DNA from: Allocoleopsis franciscana PCC 7113
GTDB lineage: Bacteria; Cyanobacteriota; Cyanobacteriia; Cyanobacteriales; Coleofasciculaceae
Length of the DNA stretch: 64,000 nt
NCBI RefSeq assembly: GCF_000317515.1
Contig: NC_019738.1
Coordinates: 7,342,001 to 7,406,000, forward strand
Reading direction: 5' to 3'
The notes below the pieces were generated by a model. That model made no database searches. It was not told the DNA's origin and saw only the letters and a list, made by a program, of their open reading frames with translations. The position numbers and the translations under genes are program-made. The stretch's first letter is position 1, and each line of letters begins with the position of its first letter. This document shows, piece by piece, positions 10,239 to 43,175 of the stretch.

Positions 10239-11744
10239 GTGAAGTTGTTCTCAGAGAATGTTTATCAAGTTCCGAATCAGCGTCAAGCCCAGAATTTATC
10301 TGATTCAGGCTTGCCTGTACAAGCAGTAGCTGAAACTAAGGGAAGTTACCCTCGGCGTTCATCTAAGAGAAATCAGCCCCCACCAGGATGTCCTCGAATA
10401 CCCCCCTCGATTAAACTCCGACAGTATCAGCGGCAAGCTGTAGCGAACTGGTTTGGCAATCAGGGGCGAGGCACACTGAAGATGGCGACGGGGAGTGGAA
10501 AGACAATTACAGCCCTTGCGATCGCCACTGAACTGTATGAAAAAATCGGTTTACAAGTCTTACTCGTCGTCTGCCCCTACCGCCATCTCGTTACCCAGTG
10601 GGCGCGAGAATGTGAAAACTTTAACCTACAACCCATCTTAGCCTTCGAGAATCTCCACAACTGGCAAAGTCAACTTTCCACCGCACTTTACAACATTCAA
10701 TCTGGCAACCATTCCTTTGTTACCGTCATTACCACCAATGCCACTTTAATCGGAGAAGGGTTACAATCTCAGCTCAATTATTTCCCTGAAAAAACGTTAA
10801 TTGTCGGCGATGAAGCCCATAACTTAGGTTCACCTCGCTTAGAACAAAGTCTACCTCGCAATATTGGCTTGCGCCTCGCCCTTTCCGCCACCCCAGAACG
10901 GTATTTTGATGAGCAGGGAACGCATTTTTTATTGGATTACTTTGGTAGTGTTTTACAACCCGAACTCACCTTAGCGGATGCCATTCGACAAGGGGCACTT
11001 GTTCACTATCTTTACTATCCCATTTTGGTGGAATTAACCGAATCCGAGACACTTTCCTATGCCAAATTAACCAAACGCATTGGTTGGGCACTGATGGATG
11101 AGGAGGATTTTGAGAGCAATGACACCGTCACATCTTTATTAATGCAACGTGCTCGATTAATTGGAGCAGCGGCGAATAAGTTAGAAGCTTTGCGACAATT
11201 AATGATGGGGCGTCTCGATACGTCTCATACCCTATTTTATTGCGGTGATGGTACGATAGAAGGCTCTCTGAGTCAGGAAAATCAGCATCAAATTGGTGCC
11301 GTCACCCGGTTACTAGGGGCAGAACTTGGCTATCGCATCAATACTTATACTGCCGATACCCCCTTGATAGAACGAGAAGAATTGCGCCGTCAATTTGAAC
11401 AGGGTGAATTGCAAGGTTTAGTAGCCATTCGTTGTTTAGATGAAGGTGTTGATATCCCTGCCATTCAAACCGCTGTAATTCTCGCCAGTAGTGGCAATCC
11501 GCGCCAGTTTATTCAGCGACGGGGGCGGATTTTGCGCCCACATTCAGGCAAGCAACGCGCTACTTTATTCGACATGATTGTTTTACCACCAGACTTGGGG
11601 CGAGAAACCTTGGAAGTGGAACGCAATCTTTTGAAAAAAGAGTTGAAGCGATTTTTAGAATTTGCTGACTTAGCCGATAATGCCGGAGAAGCTAGAATCA
11701 AACTTTTACAGCTACAAAAAAGATACGGGCTGTTGGATATGTAA
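10239..11744 (+). CDS. Superfamily 2 DEAD/DEAH helicase, Dnd-restriction-like
   Basis: The protein has 501 residues with a GTG start. About 60 basic, proline-rich residues precede the Q-region RQYQRQAV. Then come Walker A ATGSGKT (83-89), motif II GDEAHN (about 189-194), motif III LSATPE (about 214), motif V DEGVDIP and motif VI QRRGRILRP (about 424). No nuclease or methylase domain is visible. The layout recalls the ssl2/UvsW-like helicases that accompany DNA phosphorothioation systems, but this is from memory. It heads an operon: 19 bases separate it from the next gene, which in turn overlaps the DndD-like ATPase. Confidence 0.9.
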   Translation: MKLFSENVYQVPNQRQAQNLSDSGLPVQAVAETKGSYPRRSSKRNQPPPGCPRIPPSIKLRQYQRQAVANWFGNQGRGTLKMATGSGKTITALAIATELYEKIGLQVLLVVCPYRHLVTQWARECENFNLQPILAFENLHNWQSQLSTALYNIQSGNHSFVTVITTNATLIGEGLQSQLNYFPEKTLIVGDEAHNLGSPRLEQSLPRNIGLRLALSATPERYFDEQGTHFLLDYFGSVLQPELTLADAIRQGALVHYLYYPILVELTESETLSYAKLTKRIGWALMDEEDFESNDTVTSLLMQRARLIGAAANKLEALRQLMMGRLDTSHTLFYCGDGTIEGSLSQENQHQIGAVTRLLGAELGYRINTYTADTPLIEREELRRQFEQGELQGLVAIRCLDEGVDIPAIQTAVILASSGNPRQFIQRRGRILRPHSGKQRATLFDMIVLPPDLGRETLEVERNLLKKELKRFLEFADLADNAGEARIKLLQLQKRYGLLDM

Positions 11745-11763
11745 AGGAGGGGAAAAATTAGAC

Positions 11764-12012
11764 ATGGTGATGGCATTTAGCTACTCTAACATTCCGGCTA
11801 CCGTTCGACCCATCGTTGTATCGGAAAAGCGTTCTTCTTACAACGCGCCCATTGAATTGGGTGATGTACAGGAGCCGATTCTTAGCGCTCCCCCGGAAGT
11901 TCGACAAATTATTGAGCGGGTGTTACAGGCTGAAAAAGATAAACTCTACATGAAAGTTCCCCGAAACATTAATGACGATATTTTAAAAATAATCAAGGAA
12001 GAAGTACAATGA
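11764..12012 (+). CDS. Small protein between helicase and DndD-like ATPase (82 aa)
   Basis: ATG 11764 is preceded by an excellent ribosome binding site (AAGGAGGGG, 11744-11752). The TGA stop overlaps the ATG of the next gene (ATGA), so translation is coupled. The first half is extended and hydrophobic-polar. The second half is a strongly charged helix (residues after PPEVRQIIERVLQAEKDK). It is not recognisably DndE, which is the small protein of standard Dnd operons. Its position suggests an adaptor between helicase and ATPase. Function unknown. Confidence 0.8.
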   Translation: MVMAFSYSNIPATVRPIVVSEKRSSYNAPIELGDVQEPILSAPPEVRQIIERVLQAEKDKLYMKVPRNINDDILKIIKEEVQ

Positions 12013-14075
12013 AGCTGATATCGATTCGGCTTTGTAACTTTCGTCAATTCTATGGCAAAACTCCAGAAATCGTCTTAGCGAGTGGCGAGCAAAATACGAC
12101 CGTTATTCATGGTAATAATGGTGCGGGGAAAACAACGCTGCTTAATGCTTTTACCTGGGTATTATATGAGAAGTTCAGTGCGGCCTTTGCCTCGGAAGAA
12201 CAATTAGTTAATAAACGAGCGATTGCCGAATCTCCTATGGGGGACGCTGTAGACTGCTGGGTGGAATTGGGGTTTGAACATCAAAATAAACGTTACCAAG
12301 CAAAGCGTCTTTGCCGTGCCTACAAAACGGAACTTGGAGTTGAACAGGGACAAAGCGAATTGTATCTTCAGATAGCTGGCGATGATGGACGCTGGTTATT
12401 GCCGCAACAACTCCCAGAAGATATCATTGGTCGAATTTTGCCTACCAGCTTACATCAATATTTCTTCTTTGATGGTGAACGGATTGAACAAATTGTTCGC
12501 TCGGATAAAAAAGCAGAAATTGCTGAAGCTACAAAGACTTTGCTGGGTGTGGAGGTTTTAAATCGCTCAATCAAACATTTAAAGGAAGCAAAAAAAAGCT
12601 TAGAAGCCGAGTTAGCTTTGATTGGAGATTTTGAAACCCGAAAGCTTTTAAAAGAACAGGAAAAACTTGAGCAAGAAAGCCAGGTAATTTCAAATCGCCA
12701 AAAGGAAATTGAGCAAGAAATAGCACACCAGGATGAACTAAAAAAGACAGTTGGCAATCGTTTATTAGAACTGGGTGGTGCCCAAGAGTTACAGCGTCTT
12801 CGGGATGAACTGGAAGCTAAAGAAAAATTAGTCCGAGAACAGCTTAAACAATCTCAAGAAGCTCAGAAACGAGCGATATCCACACGAGGATATACGGTTT
12901 TGCTCTCAGAGGTAACGGCAGAGTTTCGAGAAATTGTTGATGAATTACGGAAAGCAGGGGAGTTGCCTGTTGGGATTAAACGGCAATTTGTTAGCGATTT
13001 ACTCCACGAACAACGCTGTATTTGTGGCACAGAATTGATCGAGGGAACTTCCACTCATCAGCATGTATCTGCTTGGATGGATAAGGCAGGAATGGCTGAT
13101 GTGGAAGAAACGGCAATCCGCATGAGTGCACAGGTGGAGGAAATCGACAAGCAAGTGCCTGAATTTTGGGAAAATGTGGATCGGCAACAAGCTAATATTG
13201 CTCAGGGAAGAGCCGATCTTTCTCAAATCGAGACGCAGTTGGATGATATTAATAAAAAGCTGCGGACTTATCCCAATGAGGATATTCAACAGTTACAAAA
13301 ACGATTGGATGAAACGGAAGAAAAGATTCGGGATTTGACCTTAGAAAAAGGAGCCAATCAGCAGAAAATAGAAAGCTTGAAGGCCGAAATAGATCGACAG
13401 ACGAAGCAAATTACCAAGCACAAGATGAATGAGGCAAAGCAAGCTTTAGCGCAACGACGAATTGCCACAACTCAGGAGGCGATTGAACGCTTAACCGAAG
13501 TGCGATCGCGTTTAGAAAATCAGTTCCGCTCTTCTTTAGAAAAGCGAGTTCAAGAAATATTTACTTCCATTTCTTTCACGCCTTATATCCCTAAATTAAG
13601 TGAAAAATATGAATTGATGCTGGTTGACCCTACAGGAGGACAAGAAACAATTGTTGCCGCCTCTACAGGGGAGAACCAAATTCTTAGCTTATCGTTTATT
13701 GGCGGTATTATTGACCGAGTACGGGAATGGATTCAAGAAAATACTTTGATGGGTCTAGATAGTAGTACGTTTCCCATGGTTATGGATTCTCCTTTCGGAA
13801 GTTTGGATGAAATTTACCGCCGACAAATTGCCAAAAAACTTCCTCAATTAGCCAATCAGCTCGTGGTTTTAGTGACTAAGACGCAATGGCGGGGAGAAGT
13901 GGAACAAGAGATGGCTCATCGCCTCGGTCGAGAATATGTTTTGACTTATAATTCTCCTAAACTTGATTGCGAAGAAGATGCGATTGAGTTAGGGGGAATT
14001 CCCTATCTTTTGGTGAAACGCAGTTCCAGTGAGTTTGAATATACAGAAATTGTCGAAGTGGATTATAGTTTTTAA
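12009..14075 (+). CDS. DndD-like / Rad50-SMC-type ATPase
   Basis: The 688-residue protein has split ABC ATPase halves around a long coiled coil. Walker A GNNGAGKTT lies at 35-43 after an LCNFRQFYG strand, as in DndD and SbcC. Heptad-rich helices run from about 180 to 530, with a CIC motif at 337-339 near the hinge, reminiscent of the zinc hook. The ABC signature region is STGENQILSLSF (about 552), and Walker B with D-loop is MVMDSPFGSLDE (about 588-600). In DndD this ATPase supports DNA phosphorothioation. Here no dndB, dndC or dndE is adjacent, so the biochemical role is open. Confidence 0.88.
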   Translation: MKLISIRLCNFRQFYGKTPEIVLASGEQNTTVIHGNNGAGKTTLLNAFTWVLYEKFSAAFASEEQLVNKRAIAESPMGDAVDCWVELGFEHQNKRYQAKRLCRAYKTELGVEQGQSELYLQIAGDDGRWLLPQQLPEDIIGRILPTSLHQYFFFDGERIEQIVRSDKKAEIAEATKTLLGVEVLNRSIKHLKEAKKSLEAELALIGDFETRKLLKEQEKLEQESQVISNRQKEIEQEIAHQDELKKTVGNRLLELGGAQELQRLRDELEAKEKLVREQLKQSQEAQKRAISTRGYTVLLSEVTAEFREIVDELRKAGELPVGIKRQFVSDLLHEQRCICGTELIEGTSTHQHVSAWMDKAGMADVEETAIRMSAQVEEIDKQVPEFWENVDRQQANIAQGRADLSQIETQLDDINKKLRTYPNEDIQQLQKRLDETEEKIRDLTLEKGANQQKIESLKAEIDRQTKQITKHKMNEAKQALAQRRIATTQEAIERLTEVRSRLENQFRSSLEKRVQEIFTSISFTPYIPKLSEKYELMLVDPTGGQETIVAASTGENQILSLSFIGGIIDRVREWIQENTLMGLDSSTFPMVMDSPFGSLDEIYRRQIAKKLPQLANQLVVLVTKTQWRGEVEQEMAHRLGREYVLTYNSPKLDCEEDAIELGGIPYLLVKRSSSEFEYTEIVEVDYSF

Positions 14076-26052: not shown

Positions 26053-26104
26053 GCGGGTAGATAGGGATTAATCGATTGAAGCGATCGCCTCTAACACATT
26101 AGCC

Positions 26105-29100
26105 TCACTCAACAAAAATAACCCCTGCGGCTAATTGAACCTGATCCAGACTGATATCTCGGCGCTGCGCGATCGCTCTCAACTTAATGTCTAACTCTCG
26201 ATTCACCTTATTCAGTAATCCTTCTGTTGCCGGAATCATCTGAAGTTTGCTCTCAAAACGGAACCGCTCAATGCGTTCCTTCAATTCTGACTGTCTGCGG
26301 TTGGCATAGTCCTCAGCACTCCGTTGCTGCACATCACAGCGATTCTTATTTTCAACCTCAAAATCTTCTGCTGCTCGGTTAAATGCATCTTCTAGGTACT
26401 CATCACAGTCATTGTAAGCCGCTAAGATTCGCTCCATGTCACCGAGTAAGTTGACGGCATTCGGCTTAGGTTTGCCTTTACGTGCTGTCAAACTGACTAA
26501 GGATTCAGACCGTTCATCAGAGAGCATCCTCCCATCGGCACATCGAGCAACTTTAGAAGCAATTTGGTTTTCAGTTCTTAGTCCTGTAAATGACCAACGG
26601 TGTATAACGTAGACGTATAGTCCGGTTGCGATATCAATGTTGTGATGTTGGATGTCCCGACTCTCCAACTGACACGCAGAAACCTCATGAAACTTGGGTG
26701 CTGCTGTTTCGTAGCGATATCTTATCCATTGAATGAGAGGATGGGTTGGGTCTAGTAACTCGTTCCGCTTACCCATTGTGCCTGCTACTTTGGGGTTAAA
26801 GAAACAGGTAACAGAGGTACTAGACGCGTGAAGGCGAGTTGGCGTTGAACACTGATGCTTGCTCAAAAACATCTGTAATTCAACTTTGGCATCTTCTGCC
26901 AATCTGATATTAAAGACCTGTGGTTTGTTCGGAACTGATTCAATGGTTGTGCCAGGATGATAACGAGCGAAGTAATCCTCAACAAATGAGTGCAGTTCTT
27001 CTGGATGAAGCCACCTGCCTTGGTCGCGGCTTTTTGTAATTTCACCCAGAATGCGATCGGAGAAAGCTAGTAGATTAATCGCTTCGGTTTCAAGCCGATC
27101 TTGTTCAGCTCTCTGCTTGATGATTGCCATTGCCGTTTCTTCAGCACGACGAATGCGATCGGTGACACTTAGATTTGGCTCAAATAGCTCGATAAGTAGC
27201 TGCTCTGTCATTTCACCGAGTATATTTTCCAGGTCGCCAATACTCTCTGTAAATACATTAATTCGCTCATAAAGTCTTTCCAAAATCCGTTCTTCAACCG
27301 TGTCTACTAGACTGAAGTTGACGATAGAAATCCTCTCAGCTTTTTGTCCCAAGCGGTCTAGGCGTCCGATGCGTTGTTCAACCCGCATTGGATTCCAAGG
27401 TAAGTCGTAGTTAATCAAAAATCGACAAAATTGGAGGTCAATCCCTTCACTGCCAACTTCAGAAGAAAGCAGAACCGAAGCAGTTCCTGTCTCAAATTCA
27501 TTTAAGACAGCCTGTTTATCGTCCATGTTGCCAAGAATCATGCAGGTACTAATTTTGTCTACCTCCAGTCGCCGTTGGAGGTAATGGAGGGTACCTCGAA
27601 AATAAGCAAAGAGAACAAATTTTTCTGTAGGATTTTTCTTGAGTTCCTGGCGGATAAATTCAACAAGTTTTTTGTACTTTGTGTCTTCCTTCTCTAATTG
27701 AGCGTAATTAAGTTTACCTTCAGGAAACAGCAAAGCTGGGATATCCCAATCAGGTTTTTCCTCAGAATCAGTACTGAGTTGAGCAGATACTCCAAAATCT
27801 TCCCAAAAAAGCTCATCCTCTTGAATAAATTCATTAAGAATGCCTTTCTGCGACCAAGCTTGAAGGGCAGCAACCATACAGCTTGCCATCTGTCGCTGAC
27901 GAGTGATTATTCTGAAAAGGGAAATTCCTTTTTGCCCTTGTGTTTGTTTCCTGATTTGACAAGTGACGTAATCGTAAATTTGCCTTTCTAGAGGAGAAAA
28001 GTGAACCACTAACGTCTGAGGTGCGCGTTCTACACGATTGGAAATGACATCACGCTTTCGATTCCTGGTAATATATTGACCGATTAATGATAAGTTTTCC
28101 AACTTATAACCTAAACGCACTCGCGCTTCGTTATCAATTTTCTCAGGTGCGGCTAAATCTTTTTTTATCTGATGTAACGTAGGGTTCTTGAAAAAATATT
28201 CAGATTGAAGTGCCTTATCTACTTCTCGCTGGGTTCCTGCAAAATCGGGTGGATTTCGCCAAGTAAGTCGCAATGCCCTGACAATTGGAGCATTAGCCTC
28301 TAGCATTTCTTGAAAGATAGACTCATTAAAAAAGTCCTCTGGGCTGATTAGCCTAAGTAATTGATACAGATTGGAGTTGTGAATTTGAATAGGAGTGGCT
28401 GTGAGTAAAAGAAGATGCCGAGATGCATCTCGCATTAATCGTCCAATGCGGTGATTGGCTGTCGCTGGATTGCGAAGATAATGTGCTTCATCAATAATGG
28501 TTAAGTCAAAGATGCCCAACTCGTCAGTTGCCGTGTTTTTATCCAAAAGTCTTGCTAGTTCTGCCCTTGCTCCTTTCACATTTTCATCTTCCCAATTAGC
28601 GCTAGGACGTAAACCTTCTAAGCTGACAATACAAGTGAAAGAATTTTGAGAACGAGTTTCTAATAAACCTCGTATTTTTTGCAAAAGTCCTTGAGCATTA
28701 GTAATTTCAGCACTAATATTGAAGCCGTTCAGGAGTTCTTTCTGCCATTTTGCACACAAAATGGAAGGACAAATAATCAACAATCGACGAGCATCTGCTC
28801 TTGCTTGAAGCTCTTTCCAGACATACATAGCTTCAATGGTTTTACCTAAGCCAACTTCATCAGCAATTAATAATCGACCGACTGGAGATTCAATAAATTT
28901 TAAGACGGGCTTAAATTGGTGAGGATAGAAGTCTGTATTACTCGACTCCATGCTGTAAAAAATGTTGGTTAAGTGCCCTCTCAGTTTCTCAAATGTAATA
29001 ATTTTTCTCAAATCATTTGAACCGCTAAACCGTCCTTGTTTTAGTAAGTCGGGAATACCCTCTGGTTCTCCACAAAGTTCCAGTAAGTTGTAAGGCTTAT

Positions 29101-29257
29101 AGGATTTTTCATTAGGACTAAACTGAACTTGCACTAAGAGTTGACTTCCAGATTGCCGATTTTTTCCAGTTGTCATACCTCGCTGACCAGGGTTAGCTTT
29201 CAGGCGAACTTCCTGCCCTGCAATATTCGGATTCCAATCTTTGGTTTCTTTATCCAT
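26105..29257 (-). CDS. SNF2/RapA-type DEAH helicase
   Basis: This is a 1050-residue protein. Counted from ATG 29257, an N-terminal region of about 115 residues precedes Walker A DEVGLGKT (133-140), motif II DEAH (256-259), motif III TATP (286-289), the second RecA domain (VLFAYFRG, about 548), SSEVGSEGIDLQ, NYDLPWNP and motif VI RIGRLDRLGQ (629-638). About 400 C-terminal residues are mainly helical and of unknown function, with no nuclease motif seen. It resembles RapA/HepA and the DrmD-like helicases of phage-defence loci. TTG 29278 is an alternative start. The gene follows the Hsp70-like gene by 81 bases on the same strand. Confidence 0.9.
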   Translation of the reverse strand: MDKETKDWNPNIAGQEVRLKANPGQRGMTTGKNRQSGSQLLVQVQFSPNEKSYKPYNLLELCGEPEGIPDLLKQGRFSGSNDLRKIITFEKLRGHLTNIFYSMESSNTDFYPHQFKPVLKFIESPVGRLLIADEVGLGKTIEAMYVWKELQARADARRLLIICPSILCAKWQKELLNGFNISAEITNAQGLLQKIRGLLETRSQNSFTCIVSLEGLRPSANWEDENVKGARAELARLLDKNTATDELGIFDLTIIDEAHYLRNPATANHRIGRLMRDASRHLLLLTATPIQIHNSNLYQLLRLISPEDFFNESIFQEMLEANAPIVRALRLTWRNPPDFAGTQREVDKALQSEYFFKNPTLHQIKKDLAAPEKIDNEARVRLGYKLENLSLIGQYITRNRKRDVISNRVERAPQTLVVHFSPLERQIYDYVTCQIRKQTQGQKGISLFRIITRQRQMASCMVAALQAWSQKGILNEFIQEDELFWEDFGVSAQLSTDSEEKPDWDIPALLFPEGKLNYAQLEKEDTKYKKLVEFIRQELKKNPTEKFVLFAYFRGTLHYLQRRLEVDKISTCMILGNMDDKQAVLNEFETGTASVLLSSEVGSEGIDLQFCRFLINYDLPWNPMRVEQRIGRLDRLGQKAERISIVNFSLVDTVEERILERLYERINVFTESIGDLENILGEMTEQLLIELFEPNLSVTDRIRRAEETAMAIIKQRAEQDRLETEAINLLAFSDRILGEITKSRDQGRWLHPEELHSFVEDYFARYHPGTTIESVPNKPQVFNIRLAEDAKVELQMFLSKHQCSTPTRLHASSTSVTCFFNPKVAGTMGKRNELLDPTHPLIQWIRYRYETAAPKFHEVSACQLESRDIQHHNIDIATGLYVYVIHRWSFTGLRTENQIASKVARCADGRMLSDERSESLVSLTARKGKPKPNAVNLLGDMERILAAYNDCDEYLEDAFNRAAEDFEVENKNRCDVQQRSAEDYANRRQSELKERIERFRFESKLQMIPATEGLLNKVNRELDIKLRAIAQRRDISLDQVQLAAGVIFVE

Positions 29258-29338
29258 ACCATGTTTATTCCTGACCAAACTGCTCTATTGCTTGAGCTTT
29301 ATTGGAAATATATTCTTTTTAATATATCCTACTCTTGT

Positions 29339-31687
29339 TCAACAAGAATCTTTCGTATCTTCGTAACGAAGAGGCTTTGAGCTAATAGTAGCTTTTAGAG
29401 TCTGTGGTTCAGCTTTGTCCATCTCACTGGGTAGCCTGATTTCTGGACAATCTCCTTCTGGGATAGATAATCCGTAAGCCACAGAAAACCGATGAAACTC
29501 TTGAGAACTCAAGCCATTCATAGCAAGGTCTTTGGGAATCGGAATAGCTTTTTGGACATAGGAGGGAATCCCAGCCTTTTTGTGCTGAAATAGAGAATGG
29601 GTAGCCAAAATTGTTGTTTTATAAAAGCTAGTTAAGCTGCCGCCGCCACCGATTAAAATGCTCAATCCATCTTCAAAAACTGAATCCTTGAATACTGGAC
29701 GGTGAATACCATGTTTCTGACGACCTTCCATGACAACTCTCCCGACTAGCTGCTGAATTTGTTTTCGGGATTGAGTAGAGTTGAATTGAGTTAAGTTTGA
29801 ATTTGATGCTTGCAAGATGTCGCGTCTTACTTGGTCTTCTGAAATATTGAGTTCACTAGCTAAACATTGTGAGATGGCGCTAACACCCAGTGGCTTCACT
29901 GATGCTGAGTAAAAATCAACTTTAGGTTCACCTTGGTCTCGCCAATAGCGAAACGATACACCATCGAGAGTGCCACAACCCACATCAAAGAAGGTATAAA
30001 AACCGTCGTCAAACTCGCGGGAATTTAAGCAAGACCAGACTTCTGCTGAAATTTCAGGAATGGCATGACAATCAATTGGGTTGTCAGCAATACGCGATCG
30101 CAGTTGGTTGAGGTGCTCACCTAAACTCTCCAAGGTAAACAGTTCAGTCTTTGGCTCATTGCTCAACAACCATGCCAGAGACAAGACTTTTTTAAAACGG
30201 GCGATCGCAGGTGAATCACAGTATTCAACAGGTACACCGACATTGGCAGACCATTCAATCTTTTGATTCTTAACTAGATCGGGTTTGTTACACCGAATCC
30301 AAGATTGAGCGCGTGTAATGACACAACTTAAGTAGTAAGCGCAAAGGTTTTCCACTGTTTCAGGTCGATCCAGCTCCGGTAACCGATCAAGCCTCCAGCG
30401 ATCGCTCTCTTGCGAGATATCCAGATCAGCCAAGCGCATTTTAATATACTTAATTGGTGTTTTAATCCGTTGCTCGATAGCTGCCCATTCTGCCTTTGTC
30501 AGTCCTGATCGCAATGTCCCGTCTGCCAAAATTGCGATTTGGGTTGGCACAAGTGCTTCATCCAGATTGGCTTGTCCATCGGTAAAAGTAACCACTTCAG
30601 AAAAGTCTCGCCCAATATCACGGAAGCAAACTTTGGTAAAACTGGTACCAAAATCAATACCTAGGTTGATATAGAGCAGCTCAAGTTCTACTACTGGGAC
30701 TTCTGGTTCAGAGGGTCTACGCCTAATAAGAGCCTGTAATTCGTTTTGCAGTTGTGCAAGTTCTGCTTGTAGGTTATTTTGCTGCTGCTGCAAGTCACTC
30801 CGCCACTGTTCCAAGCCAGCCTGTACTTGAAGAATCTCCTCTTGGAGACTATTCACCCATCCTGTTGAGGGGAAACTCTCTAAGCGCTGGTCAAAGCTGG
30901 CGGTTGATTCTCGCAAGTTGTCATACTGACCTTGCAGCTGAGTAATCGTTTGAAAAACAGACCTGAAATTGAGAGACTCTATTGAAGCAATCCGGCTGTG
31001 TAGATCAGCGAGTTCTTGTTGGACGATTTGAAGCGCTGCTGTGTCTAGGGTAGGTTCTTGAGATTGAAGCTGTTGACGAAGGGTAGAAACGCTTGCTTGC
31101 AGTTGGGAAAAACTTTGCTCGAACTGAGCTTGGAGCTGATAAAGATTTTGAGGGACTAATTCTAAATTGAGAGACTCAAAAGTCGTAATGCGTTCTTGTA
31201 GCCTAGAGAGTCCTTGCTGGATGTCTTGAAGCGTTGCAGGATTAACAACAGTCGCTTGAGACTGAACAAACTGACGAATGGCTTGAATCTCACTGGAGAT
31301 ATTAGCACTCAGTTGTGAAAGCCTCACCTCAAACCGAGCGATCGCATCTGGGAGATTGACCGATGCTTGTTGGGATGAAGTTAATTGGTAATCAAGCGTT
31401 TGAATTTGTTGATTGAGTGAGTTCCTTACTTCCTGTTGTAAACGAGAAAAGTCCTGATTCAGTTGTGAGAGTTGCCGCTCAACTTGAGCCGCCGTGGCTG
31501 TAAGGCTCTGCTGCATTTGCTGCTCAAACCGTTGCCGATTGAGCAGATTGAGAAAGATAGAGAGCGATAAAGGAGCAGCAGCATAGACCACTTGTCTTGA
31601 AGCAGTTGAAATGACTACTCCAGCGACAGAAGCTGCAAGGGAGGTATACTCAGCAACCTTCAGGAAGCGCAATCCATTCGACTGCAT
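29339..31687 (-). CDS. Membrane-anchored coiled-coil Hsp70/actin-like ATPase
   Basis: Of 782 residues, 11-50 hold two short hydrophobic stretches (VAEYTSLAASVAGVVIS, YAAAPLSLSIFLNLL), probably a membrane hairpin. Residues 55-325 are a glutamine-rich coiled coil containing two related units (151-207 and 217-270, each with ESLN). The C-terminal part is an Hsp70/actin ATPase: phosphate-1 LGIDFGTSFTKV (342-353), phosphate-2 FDVGCGTLDG (567-576) and adenosine motif ILIGGGGS (677-684). A substrate-binding Hsp70 C-domain is absent, so it is not DnaK. It is first in a two-gene operon with the helicase. I infer a sensor or regulator role for that helicase. Confidence 0.85.
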   Translation of the reverse strand: MQSNGLRFLKVAEYTSLAASVAGVVISTASRQVVYAAAPLSLSIFLNLLNRQRFEQQMQQSLTATAAQVERQLSQLNQDFSRLQQEVRNSLNQQIQTLDYQLTSSQQASVNLPDAIARFEVRLSQLSANISSEIQAIRQFVQSQATVVNPATLQDIQQGLSRLQERITTFESLNLELVPQNLYQLQAQFEQSFSQLQASVSTLRQQLQSQEPTLDTAALQIVQQELADLHSRIASIESLNFRSVFQTITQLQGQYDNLRESTASFDQRLESFPSTGWVNSLQEEILQVQAGLEQWRSDLQQQQNNLQAELAQLQNELQALIRRRPSEPEVPVVELELLYINLGIDFGTSFTKVCFRDIGRDFSEVVTFTDGQANLDEALVPTQIAILADGTLRSGLTKAEWAAIEQRIKTPIKYIKMRLADLDISQESDRWRLDRLPELDRPETVENLCAYYLSCVITRAQSWIRCNKPDLVKNQKIEWSANVGVPVEYCDSPAIARFKKVLSLAWLLSNEPKTELFTLESLGEHLNQLRSRIADNPIDCHAIPEISAEVWSCLNSREFDDGFYTFFDVGCGTLDGVSFRYWRDQGEPKVDFYSASVKPLGVSAISQCLASELNISEDQVRRDILQASNSNLTQFNSTQSRKQIQQLVGRVVMEGRQKHGIHRPVFKDSVFEDGLSILIGGGGSLTSFYKTTILATHSLFQHKKAGIPSYVQKAIPIPKDLAMNGLSSQEFHRFSVAYGLSIPEGDCPEIRLPSEMDKAEPQTLKATISSKPLRYEDTKDSC

Positions 31688-31734
31688 AGAATTCTTGTCA
31701 CCTAATTAAGTTCACATTTTTCCCTAAGCCCTAC

Positions 31735-40618: not shown

Positions 40619-41221
40619 CTAATCATTGATGGCGTTCAGCAAGACTTCTGATAAAGATAGATCAGCCATGTCATCCATCGTAATGGCGTCACAAATATCA
40701 AATTTGGCTCCGACCCCTTGCAACTGATCGTCTAACGCCTTGAGAAACTGAGTTGCAGTTGGGTCATTACCCACTTGAATCATCGAAATTCCTAGTTCTT
40801 CATCTCGTTCCATCTGCCGAGAGGCTTCAACAATCGCGACCATCACACCTTTGCGGTCATCCGGTTCCCCATCGGTTATCACCAATATGGTTTCTCCACC
40901 AGGCTTGGTTTGTCCAGCCGCTTTATGTTGAAAGTAGCGATCGGTCGCATCTTTGAGTACAGCCGCCAGATTGGTGGTACCCGCCGGGTCATTTTCTTGA
41001 AAAATTTGTGCCACCTTACTAGAGGTGACATTGTCGTAGCGTTTAAAGCGACTGGAAAACAGGTAAACCGTAATTCCATCCGGATCGAATTGTTCACACT
41101 TTCTCGCCAACGCTAAGGTAGATTCCTGTGCTGCCTCCCAGCGACTTCGTCCACCCGCTTGGTCGGGAGTGGACATACTGCCGCTCTTGTCAATGATTAG
41201 GGTGTAATCACGGTCTTGCAC
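40619..41221 (-). CDS. VWA domain protein (third paralogue)
   Basis: The product is 200 residues and is essentially a single von Willebrand factor type A domain. The metal-binding MIDAS motif is complete (DKSGSMS at residues 9-15, the Thr in GTTNLAAVL, the Asp in VITDGEPDD). The start is GTG 41221 with AGGAGA about 10 bases upstream, giving MQDRDYTLIID. It is nearly identical over most of its length to the two genes at 41246 and 42457 (by eye about 80-85%). No signal peptide. VWA proteins commonly pair with MoxR AAA ATPases or bind partners via metal, but no MoxR gene is present here. Confidence 0.92.
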   Translation of the reverse strand: MQDRDYTLIIDKSGSMSTPDQAGGRSRWEAAQESTLALARKCEQFDPDGITVYLFSSRFKRYDNVTSSKVAQIFQENDPAGTTNLAAVLKDATDRYFQHKAAGQTKPGGETILVITDGEPDDRKGVMVAIVEASRQMERDEELGISMIQVGNDPTATQFLKALDDQLQGVGAKFDICDAITMDDMADLSLSEVLLNAIND

Positions 41222-41245
41222 AATCTAAAGTCTCCTGCGAATAAC

Positions 41246-41848
41246 TTAATCGTTGATGGCGTTCAGCAACACTTCCGCCAAAGACATATTCTCCATGTCA
41301 TCCAGCGTCACTGTATCTACAATGTCGAACTGTGCCCCAGCACCTTGCAGTTCATCGTCTAGTGCTTTGAGGAAACGAGTGGCAGTGGCATCGCTACCCA
41401 CTTGAATCAGCGAAATCCCCAGTTCTTCATCTCGTTCCATGTGCCGTGATGCCTCAATGATGACTCGCATCACCGCTTTACGGTCATCCGGTTCCCCATC
41501 AGTGATGACTAAAATTGTTTCTCCGTTCGGCTTCGTTGCACCAGATGCCTTGCGTTGAAAGTAATTATCAGTAGCATCCTTCAGCACGCTGGCAAGGTCA
41601 GTGGTACCCATCGGGTCGTTTTCCATAAAAATCTGAGCGACTTTGTTAGCCGTCACATTTTCGTAACGCTTAAAGCGACCGGAAAACAGGTAAACGGTAA
41701 TTCCATCTGGATCGAATTGTTCACATTTTCTAGCCAGTGCCAAGGTCGATTCTTGGGCAATGTCCCAACGGCTTCTTCCACCCGCTTGATCCGGGGTAGA
41801 CATGCTACCGCTCTTATCAATGATTAATGTATAGTCACGGTCTTCCAC
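41246..41848 (-). CDS. VWA domain protein (second paralogue)
   Basis: The product is 200 residues, one VWA domain with full MIDAS (DKSGSMS, Thr in GTTDLASVL, Asp in TDGEPDD). I chose GTG 41848. The ATG 15 bases upstream (41863) lies in the GGAGGT ribosome binding site, and a GTG start gives the same length and MEDRDYTLIID opening as the other copies. The gene is 24 bases upstream of the third paralogue, so the two are likely translated from one message. Confidence 0.92.
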   Translation of the reverse strand: MEDRDYTLIIDKSGSMSTPDQAGGRSRWDIAQESTLALARKCEQFDPDGITVYLFSGRFKRYENVTANKVAQIFMENDPMGTTDLASVLKDATDNYFQRKASGATKPNGETILVITDGEPDDRKAVMRVIIEASRHMERDEELGISLIQVGSDATATRFLKALDDELQGAGAQFDIVDTVTLDDMENMSLAEVLLNAIND

Positions 41849-41930
41849 AATAGAACCTCCCATAGTGAGAATTTACCTCCCGTGATGGTCACAGTTTCCT
41901 CTCTAAGCCTATACGACTCCCGGATGAATT

Positions 41931-42416
41931 TTACCCATGAGTTTCTCGTAAGGCCGTCAAATAATCAATTGCGGCATCTAACTTAGAAGGATAAGAATAA
42001 GAAAACTCTTCAAACCACAAACCTTCTTCCGAGCGAGAATTTAGTTTTTTTAACCATTCCGTTGCTTCTTGAGTCAGTGCCTCTCGTTTCCTTTTGCGCC
42101 TCTGCTCTTCCTTGATTTGTTCTTCTCTCAGTTGTTGTTCTTTTTGAAGCTGTTCTTCTCTTAGTTGTTGCTGCTTTTTAAGTTCCTCTGCTTGCTCTTT
42201 TTCCTCAAACTCAGCCCGAACATCAGCTAATAAATTTTCCTCAGCTAAACTGAGAAAATTGCTCTGAATAGATTGGGAGTGATAAGTCGGAGAAACAGGT
42301 GGTGGAGATTGAAAGTCTTCTTCCTTAAAAAGAGGCTCTTTTTGGGGTTTTAATCCTAGCTCTTTTTCTTGATACTCCGCTTTGACTTGAGCTAATAAGT
42401 CATCGATTGATTCCAT
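41931..42416 (-). CDS. Coiled-coil protein within the VWA cluster
   Basis: This 161-residue protein has two copies of a LLA(Q/D)V(K/R)AE(Y/F)(Q/E)EKE unit (near residues 7-21 and 60-74). A charged helix full of REEQLQKEQQ heptads spans about 80-115. The C-terminal portion (WLKKLNSRSEEGLWFEEFSYSYPS) looks like a small folded region. I do not recognise the family. Its place between two VWA paralogues suggests it is a partner, perhaps a ligand that bridges MIDAS sites. This is inference from position only. Confidence 0.75.
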   Translation of the reverse strand: MESIDDLLAQVKAEYQEKELGLKPQKEPLFKEEDFQSPPPVSPTYHSQSIQSNFLSLAEENLLADVRAEFEEKEQAEELKKQQQLREEQLQKEQQLREEQIKEEQRRKRKREALTQEATEWLKKLNSRSEEGLWFEEFSYSYPSKLDAAIDYLTALRETHG

Positions 42417-42456
42417 GAGTTTGACCCTCAGCTAAAACACTTGTAATTGTGCCTAC

Positions 42457-43062
42457 CTAGTCTGTAATGGCATTGAGTAAAACTTCTGTTAAGGTCATGT
42501 CTTCCATGTCCTCCATAGTCACTGTGTCCACAATGTCAAACTTGGCACCAGCGCTTTGGAGTTCGTCATCTAATATTTTGAGAAATTTGGTAGCTTGGGC
42601 ATCGGTGCCAACTTGAATGAAGGAAATGGCTAATTCTTCATCCCGTTCCATCCGCCTGGATGCTTCTATAATGACCTTCATGACAGCTTTGCGGTCATCG
42701 GGTTCACCATCGGTAACAACTAGGATTGTCTCTCCGTTTGGCTTAGTCTGACCAGCGGCCTTGCGTTGGAAGTAATTACTGGTAGCATCTTGTAACACGC
42801 TCGCTAAGTCAGTACGACCTGAGGGTTCATTTTCTTTAAAGACTTGGGTAACTTTGTTCGCGGTTACATTGTCGTAGCGTTTGAAGCGACCGGAAAACAA
42901 GTACACCGTGATCCCGTCTGGGTCAAATTCTTCGCATTTACTGGCTAAGGCGAGGCTAGACTCTTGCATGGTTTCCCAGCGGCTTTTATTACCCAACTGG
43001 TCACGAGTCGCCATGCTGCCGCTTTTGTCGATGATTAATGTATAGTCGCGCTGCTCTAGCAT
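42457..43062 (-). CDS. VWA domain protein (first paralogue)
   Basis: The product is 201 residues, a single VWA domain with MIDAS motif DKSGSMA, Thr in GRTDLASVL and Asp in VTDGEPDD. ATG 43062 (MLEQRDYTLIID) is chosen because GGGGGAGA is about 6 bases upstream. An upstream TTG would overlap that site. It is the most upstream of three tandem copies and carries a slightly different set of changes (for example NKSRWETMQ instead of GGRSRW), so it may be the parental copy. The cluster's promoter should lie between it and ndhN. Confidence 0.92.
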   Translation of the reverse strand: MLEQRDYTLIIDKSGSMATRDQLGNKSRWETMQESSLALASKCEEFDPDGITVYLFSGRFKRYDNVTANKVTQVFKENEPSGRTDLASVLQDATSNYFQRKAAGQTKPNGETILVVTDGEPDDRKAVMKVIIEASRRMERDEELAISFIQVGTDAQATKFLKILDDELQSAGAKFDIVDTVTMEDMEDMTLTEVLLNAITD

Positions 43063-43175
43063 GAAAATCTCCCCCAATCTGCTCAGTATGTTTTAAGGGT
43101 ATCAAAACCCGTAATCTGAGCTACAAGTTGAGGGAGGATTAAAGTCGTTGGGCTTGGGATATATTGGCGTTTGAG

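What the first reader, a model, noticed from the sequence alone, without database searches (positions are those of the whole stretch)
26105..31687. Operon of a membrane-anchored Hsp70-like ATPase and a SNF2/RapA-type helicase
Seen: a protein with two hydrophobic stretches, 270 residues of coiled coil and an Hsp70/actin ATPase, 81 bases before a 1050-residue DEAH helicase on the same strand, between housekeeping mtnP and a tRNA. Known: Hsp70-like and SNF2-like proteins each occur in bacterial conflict systems (for example DrmD-type helicases in DISARM). Inference: the ATPase senses a signal at the membrane and controls the helicase. I know of no named system with this domain layout.
Basis: partly seen in the sequence, partly recalled or inferred. 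Interest (0 to 1): 0.8.

Follow-up and report, generated by a model that had tools for sequence, protein, structure and literature searches.

The report
Portable helicase plus Hsp70-type ATPase cassette
A cyanobacterium carries a mobile two-gene cassette, a DNA-motor protein always found beside an ATPase built like the engine of the chaperone Hsp70, that recurs across many bacterial phyla alone or inside known antiviral systems and has no published name that I could find.

Summary
In detail: a 782-aa protein (two hydrophobic segments, long coiled coil, Hsp70-type ATPase domain) lies 81 bp upstream of a 1050-aa RapA-type SNF2/DEAH helicase. The pairing is not incidental. Of 80 helicase homologues found with helicase sequence alone, 77 have the same ATPase adjacent; one has another Hsp70, one ends at the contig edge, one helicase is truncated. 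The two proteins co-diverge (r 0.92). A sister helicase group carries a sacsin-like Hsp90 ATPase in the same slot; more distant relatives (DrmD, BrxHII, DpdE, HmaA types) carry neither. Here the pair is a 5.65-kb insert missing from the nearest relative. Elsewhere it sits alone, on plasmids, or inside DISARM, BREX, Hma and other restriction-type loci. I read it as a portable defence module in which an Hsp70-type ATP switch gates a RapA-like duplex-DNA translocase. Pairing and mobility are shown, defence is inferred from context, the mechanism is a hypothesis. Membrane anchoring is a lineage-specific addition, so the 'membrane sensor' idea is only partly supported. PADLOC labels the helicase DrmD, but true DrmD is a separate gene beside it in a DISARM operon.

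The parts
26072..31719 (.). Inserted cassette (5,648 bp) that replaces about 116 bp present in the nearest relative; holds exactly the two genes; 43% GC against 46-48% in the flanks
   Evidence: blastn of the window against G386: homology ends at 26071 and resumes at 31720; GC
26105..29278 (-). RapA-type SNF2/DEAH helicase, 1057 aa from TTG (1050 aa from ATG at 29257)
   Evidence: Pfam SNF2-rel_dom 6e-24 and Helicase_C 8e-21; RapA is the full-length structural match, Z about 24 over about 790 residues
29075..29221 (-). N-terminal beta-rich (SH3/Tudor-like, inferred) region, residues 20-68
   Evidence: AlphaFold2 strands 23-68; the Tudor comparison comes from the RapA/BrxHII description in PMC12839542
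27209..28966 (-). SNF2 motor (residues 105-690) with GKT, DEAH and QRIGRLDR
26108..27181 (-). RapA-like C-terminal region (residues 700-1057), invariant E840 and H846, terminal helical hairpin
29339..31687 (-). Membrane/coiled-coil/Hsp70-type ATPase, 782 aa
31538..31687 (-). Two hydrophobic segments (residues about 12-50), predicted membrane hairpin; model confidence low here
   Evidence: sequence; hydropathy peak 1.89; low pLDDT; same module on two other proteins of this genome
30722..31537 (-). Coiled coil, residues 51-322
   Evidence: helix in AlphaFold2 model; matches only to coiled-coil families
29417..30676 (-). Hsp70-type nucleotide-binding domain, residues 338-757, no substrate-binding domain seen
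   Evidence: Z 24-26 to DnaK, Hsc70 and Hsp110 nucleotide-binding domains; profile match to BiP 1.8e-5; D345, K416, E545, D568, T573, G681-G682 invariant in 48 homologues

Best explanation
A portable two-gene defence module. One protein is a RapA-type SNF2 translocase, predicted to move on duplex DNA; the other is an Hsp70 nucleotide-binding-domain ATPase without a substrate-binding domain. The ATPase most likely acts as an ATP-dependent conformational switch or clamp that loads, gates or resets the translocase on foreign DNA, or on the polymerase complexes bound to it, stopping phages or plasmids without a nuclease of its own. It can act alone, as here, or as an add-on to restriction-type systems that supply modification or cleavage. 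In the lineage of this cyanobacterium the ATPase gained a membrane hairpin and coiled coil that may tether the complex where DNA enters. Shown: the two-gene unit, co-divergence, intact active sites, folds (predicted), mobility, defence-locus context. Inferred: defence function. Hypothesis: the gating mechanism and the role of the tether.
For: Adjacency in 77 of 80 loci found by helicase alone, plus a different Hsp70 in one. Co-divergence r 0.92, no permutation of 5000 above 0.20. Both gene orders occur, often with overlapping ends, so proximity is kept although order changes. Catalytic residues invariant in both. Empty site in the nearest relative; patchy presence, 6 of 386 cyanobacteria; presence on plasmids, two of them conjugative. 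Inside DISARM between drmD and drmMI (L046), inside BREX between brxC and pglX (L129) or among BREX genes (L130), with HmaB-HmaC, PDC-S68, DrmA/DrmB or Vsr, next to Hachiman on plasmid pAA03. Sister helicases carry a sacsin-like Hsp90 ATPase instead (8 distinct loci), and PDC-S68 or PglZ flank either type: two unrelated chaperone-type ATPases fill the same slot.
Against: No experiment shows defence. Many copies stand alone among housekeeping genes, including this one; of 46 loci with at least 4.5 kb on both sides I can tie about 20 to known defence genes. Other roles for an Hsp70-type domain, such as filament formation, are not excluded. Shared context could reflect general clustering in defence islands.
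Confidence: 0.5

Rival explanations
1. It is an orphan or remnant of DISARM: the helicase is DrmD and the ATPase a passenger.
For: PADLOC model PDLC02623, named DrmD, matches full length at 1.5e-299; DISARM-like genes flank some homologues.
Against: In L046 the pair lies beside a separate DrmD of another branch. NCBIfam DISARM_DrmD scores 451.8 against a cut-off of 610. No drmA, drmB or drmC near the window copy; the DrmA-like gene of this genome is on another contig. The tree separates the pair's helicases from other SNF2 types. The ATPase is conserved, not a passenger.
Confidence: 0.1
2. A housekeeping transcription-recycling or DNA-repair machine like RapA, with a dedicated chaperone-type helper, not a defence system.
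For: RapA is the best full-length structural match; many copies sit among housekeeping genes.
Against: Rare and patchy, absent from the closest relative at the same site, carried on plasmids, enriched in restriction-type loci: 15 loci with a second SNF2 gene in 1.45 Mb of fetched DNA, against 6 matches in the 8-Mb host genome.
Confidence: 0.15
3. The ATPase forms actin/ParM-like filaments that position or partition DNA or the helicase at the membrane.
For: Actin-superfamily fold; ParM appears weakly among profile matches; coiled coil and membrane hairpin in some lineages.
Against: Structural matches are led by Hsp70 nucleotide-binding domains; the slot is filled by an Hsp90-type ATPase in the sister group, a fold not known to make such filaments; most copies lack the membrane part.
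Confidence: 0.12
4. Membrane-anchored sensor: the coil detects an envelope event of infection and the ATPase releases or activates the helicase.
For: Membrane segment plus coil arose at least twice on this ATPase (cyanobacteria and L084), and L095 has a separate coiled-coil gene in the same operon.
Against: Most homologues have no predicted membrane segment; the same N-terminal module is used on unrelated proteins in this genome.
Confidence: 0.13

Closest known systems
RapA (HepA), RNA-polymerase-associated SNF2 ATPase
   Same: Same layout along the whole chain: N-terminal beta domain, SNF2 motor, RapA-like C-terminal region
   Different: About 19% identity; RapA is a core gene of many bacteria without an Hsp70-type partner (general knowledge); this one is mobile and paired
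DrmD of DISARM (class 1)
   Same: Large RapA-like SNF2 helicase in restriction-type loci; PADLOC puts both under one name
   Different: Separate branch, below the NCBIfam cut-off, can coexist with true DrmD in one operon; needs no DISARM genes nearby; has an obligatory ATPase partner
BrxHII of BREX type 3, ArmA of ARMADA, HmaA, DpdE
   Same: RapA-like SNF2 helicases of modification-linked defence systems
   Different: Low-scoring relatives (under 400 bits with my profile) have no adjacent Hsp70-type or sacsin-like gene of their own
CoCoNuT type III CnuD/CnuCD (Hsp70-like domains in McrBC-related systems, PMC11090510)
   Same: Hsp70-like nucleotide-binding domain used in a predicted restriction system; coiled coils present
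   Different: Those are built on McrB/McrC homologues, UPF1-like helicases and nucleases, and include a substrate-binding domain; none of these is here
Tiamat (TmtA, GHKL ATPase; its function is recalled, not tested)
   Same: The Hsp90-type partner of the sister helicases matches TmtA models, up to 252.7 bits
   Different: Tiamat is a single-gene system as I recall; here a related ATPase is fixed beside a RapA-like helicase

Membership tests
DISARM (class 1) | drmA, drmB, drmC core next to the helicase | tested here: not met
   No such genes near the window copy; a DrmA/DrmB-like pair lies on another contig
DISARM (class 1) | helicase passes the DrmD family cut-off | tested here: not met
   NCBIfam NF038317: 451.8 bits against 610; PADLOC PDLC02623 does match
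RapA-type SNF2 helicases | full-length RapA-like architecture with SNF2 motifs | tested here: met
   RapA alignment 72-1057, Z 23-24; motifs invariant
Hsp70 chaperones | Hsp70-type nucleotide-binding domain with catalytic residues | tested here: met
   Z 24-26; invariant residues
Hsp70 chaperones | C-terminal substrate-binding domain | tested here: not met
   The ordered domain ends near residue 757 of 782; the remaining 25 residues are too few and of low confidence
BREX | pglX, pglZ, brxC next to the gene | tested here: not met
   Not in the window; met for homologous loci L129 and, in part, L130
CoCoNuT (McrBC-like) | McrB/McrC homologue in the operon | tested here: not met
   The cassette holds only two genes, neither matching McrB or McrC
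Antiphage defence system | protects cells from phage or plasmid | not testable with these tools
   Needs an experiment; only genomic context is available

The most novel reading that the evidence does not exclude
A general, unrecognised design in prokaryotic immunity: a RapA-like DNA motor obligatorily coupled to a chaperone-type ATPase, Hsp70-type in one branch and Hsp90-type (sacsin-like) in the sister branch, the two being interchangeable in the same operon positions and pluggable into BREX, DISARM, Hma and PDC-S68 loci or used alone.
Probability: 0.45. Interest if true: 0.85.

Novelty: new variant of a known kind. Interest (0 to 1): 0.72.

Why it matters
SNF2 helicases recur in many restriction-type defence systems and how they are controlled is open. 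A strict partnership with chaperone-type ATPases, kept across more than ten phyla and exchangeable between Hsp70 and Hsp90 types, would give a testable answer and a function for Hsp70 nucleotide-binding domains that lack a substrate-binding domain. It also warns that a widely used annotation model (PADLOC PDLC02623, 'DrmD') lumps this pair with DISARM, so DISARM counts may be inflated.

Tried and rejected
First genome-contig scan with the single helicase failed because the peptide patterns were poor; the alignment-based scan worked. Pfam gives no Hsp70 hit for any of 48 ATPase homologues; the fold had to come from a profile search and a model. No direct or inverted repeats of 8-9 bases at the insert ends; promoter-like and terminator-like matches are at or near the shuffled level. 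Searched for a conserved third gene: none; the commonest extra neighbour is PDC-S68, in 7 loci. Literature searches in the open-access library found no description of the SNF2-Hsp70 or SNF2-sacsin pair; the original DISARM paper is not held, so earlier mention in subscription papers or supplements is not excluded. In one search the first sacsin profile contained two wrong sequences; rebuilt clean, it found the same partners. The trees were quick ones with long branches; the order of the Hsp70 and Hsp90 branches is only moderately supported and a formal clade test did not finish.

Full report
WHAT IS THERE. The window is from a cyanobacterial chromosome (7.97 Mb assembly). The helicase has SNF2 and Helicase_C domains. 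Its AlphaFold2 model (mean pLDDT 83) matches RapA over nearly the whole chain, Z 23-24 with about 790 residues aligned, while eukaryotic SNF2 proteins match mainly the motor. The ATPase has no Pfam Hsp70 hit, but a profile of 48 homologues finds BiP and DnaK (1.8e-5) and the model matches Hsp70 nucleotide-binding domains at Z 24-26 over 310-330 residues. No substrate-binding domain follows. Catalytic residues are invariant in both families.

THE PAIR IS A UNIT. Six of 386 cyanobacterial genomes have a close helicase homologue; all six have the ATPase adjacent; nine have any ATPase homologue. A scan of 84,980 species genomes with helicase sequence only gave 80 loci; 77 have the ATPase adjacent. 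The exceptions are explained: L095 has a different, DnaK-like Hsp70 preceded by a separate coiled-coil gene, L096 ends 6 bp after the helicase, L132 has a truncated helicase. Ends often overlap by 3-40 bp. Distances in the two families correlate at r 0.92 over 40 loci, with no permutation above 0.20. Order varies: ATPase first in Leptolyngbya-type cyanobacteria, helicase first elsewhere. The loci cover Cyanobacteriota, Pseudomonadota, Acidobacteriota, Planctomycetota, Spirochaetota, Myxococcota, Bdellovibrionota, Ignavibacteriota, Kiritimatiellota and others, and the tree does not follow the phyla strictly.

IT MOVES. In the nearest relative (same genus) the flanking mtnP-like and 181-aa genes are 156 bp apart; homology breaks at window 26071 and resumes at 31720, so the cassette is exactly the two genes. 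GC is 43% against 46-48% in the flanks. Copies are on plasmids of Leptolyngbya, Cyanobacterium, Shinella, Sphingobium and Aminobacter, those of the last two typed as conjugative.

DEFENCE CONTEXT. No third gene is universal. In L046 the pair lies between drmD and drmMI of a class 1 DISARM operon. In L129 it lies between brxC and pglX of BREX, and in L130 between pglX and pglZ. In L071-L073 it follows HmaB-HmaC and precedes PDC-S68; in L108, L111 and L123 it follows DrmA/DrmB-like and NERD-UvrD genes, with Vsr after it in two. L048 has SspG and SspH nearby. On pAA03 it is next to Hachiman. About 20 of 46 loci with at least 4.5 kb on both sides have such neighbours; the rest, this one included, look solitary. 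A second, distinct SNF2 gene occurs in 15 loci, so the pair is an addition and not simply the host system's own helicase.

A SISTER BRANCH WITH AN HSP90-TYPE PARTNER. Helicases scoring 400-800 bits with my profile, against more than 800 for the pair, have a sacsin-like GHKL (Hsp90-type) ATPase in the same slot in 8 distinct loci: L013 (same place as L174), L169, L171, L172, L173, L186, L188, L189. One viral-collection contig (L187) has a minimal 411-aa Hsp70-type ATPase. Those under 400 bits have neither of their own. Pfam SACS supports L171-L173 and PADLOC places L169, L171 and L172 near Tiamat TmtA. PDC-S68 follows the pair in both branches (L068, L071; L189) and PglZ accompanies both (L129, L130; L169). 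The tree groups the Hsp70-paired helicases (SH-aLRT 95) and joins them to the sacsin-paired ones (95), apart from DrmD, BrxHII, DpdE and HmaA types (quick tree, long branches, so the order is provisional).

MECHANISM. Two unrelated chaperone-type ATPases filling one slot beside one motor type argues that the partner works as an ATP-driven conformational clamp or switch, and less for a filament or a passenger (inference). RapA-like motors move on duplex DNA and RapA acts on stalled polymerase (established knowledge). I found no canonical nuclease motif conserved in the helicase C-terminus: the invariant polar residues there include E840 and H846, and the BrxHII domain that corresponds to RapA's is described as an inactive restriction-nuclease fold in PMC12839542. 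Hence the non-nucleolytic model: the motor clears or blocks foreign DNA, the ATPase gates it, and neighbouring systems may add cleavage. L049 keeps the helicase N- and C-terminal regions and L050 the C-terminal region, both have lost the working motor, and both keep a neighbouring ATPase (intact in L049, broken in L050); this hints that the ATPase docks on non-motor parts, though decay is equally possible.

THE MEMBRANE PART. A hydrophobic N-terminus with long coil occurs in the Leptolyngbya-type clade and separately in L084; elsewhere the extension is short or polar. The same hairpin-plus-coil begins a WD40 protein and a 1430-aa coiled-coil protein in this genome. It is an add-on that may matter locally.

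KNOWN OR NOT. PADLOC calls the helicase DrmD, NCBIfam does not, and plasmid annotations call the ATPase hypothetical. Open-access full text gave no description of the pair. I therefore class it as a new variant of a known kind (RapA/DrmD-type defence modules) with an unreported obligatory partner.

Noticed in passing
window 10239-14075: A second defence-like cluster 12 kb from the pair: PbeA-like helicase lacking its N-terminal third (profile 224-681 of 682), a 110-aa ORF, and a full-length PbeC (DndD-like) ATPase.
   Followed up: partly
L165 5559-16992 (own genome, contig C2, 146 kb): DrmA-like and DrmB-like genes, an 826-aa gene without a PADLOC match, and a cytosine methyltransferase on what may be a plasmid; separate from the pair.
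   Followed up: partly
L163 4066-5682 and L164 5653-9945 (own genome): Two other proteins start with the same hydrophobic hairpin plus coil: one ends in WD40-type repeats, one is a 1430-aa repetitive coiled coil; a reusable cyanobacterial N-terminal module.
   Followed up: partly
L049 7499-10864; L050 7642-10848: Motorless partner: a 501-544 aa protein with the helicase's C-terminal region (and in L049 the N-terminal region) but a degenerate motor, beside the Hsp70-type ATPase. Decay or a working inactive variant is unresolved.
   Followed up: partly
L095 3269-5516: Helicase followed by a coiled-coil gene and a different DnaK-like Hsp70: apparent replacement of the usual ATPase.
   Followed up: partly
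L189 5233-14800: Viral-collection contig with SNF2 helicase, sacsin-like ATPase and PDC-S68 in a row: the same order as Hsp70-type loci with the partner swapped.
   Followed up: yes
window 40619-43077: Three tandem, similar von Willebrand A (TerY-like by eye) proteins of about 200 aa, containing 'RDYTLIIDKSGSM'.
   Followed up: no
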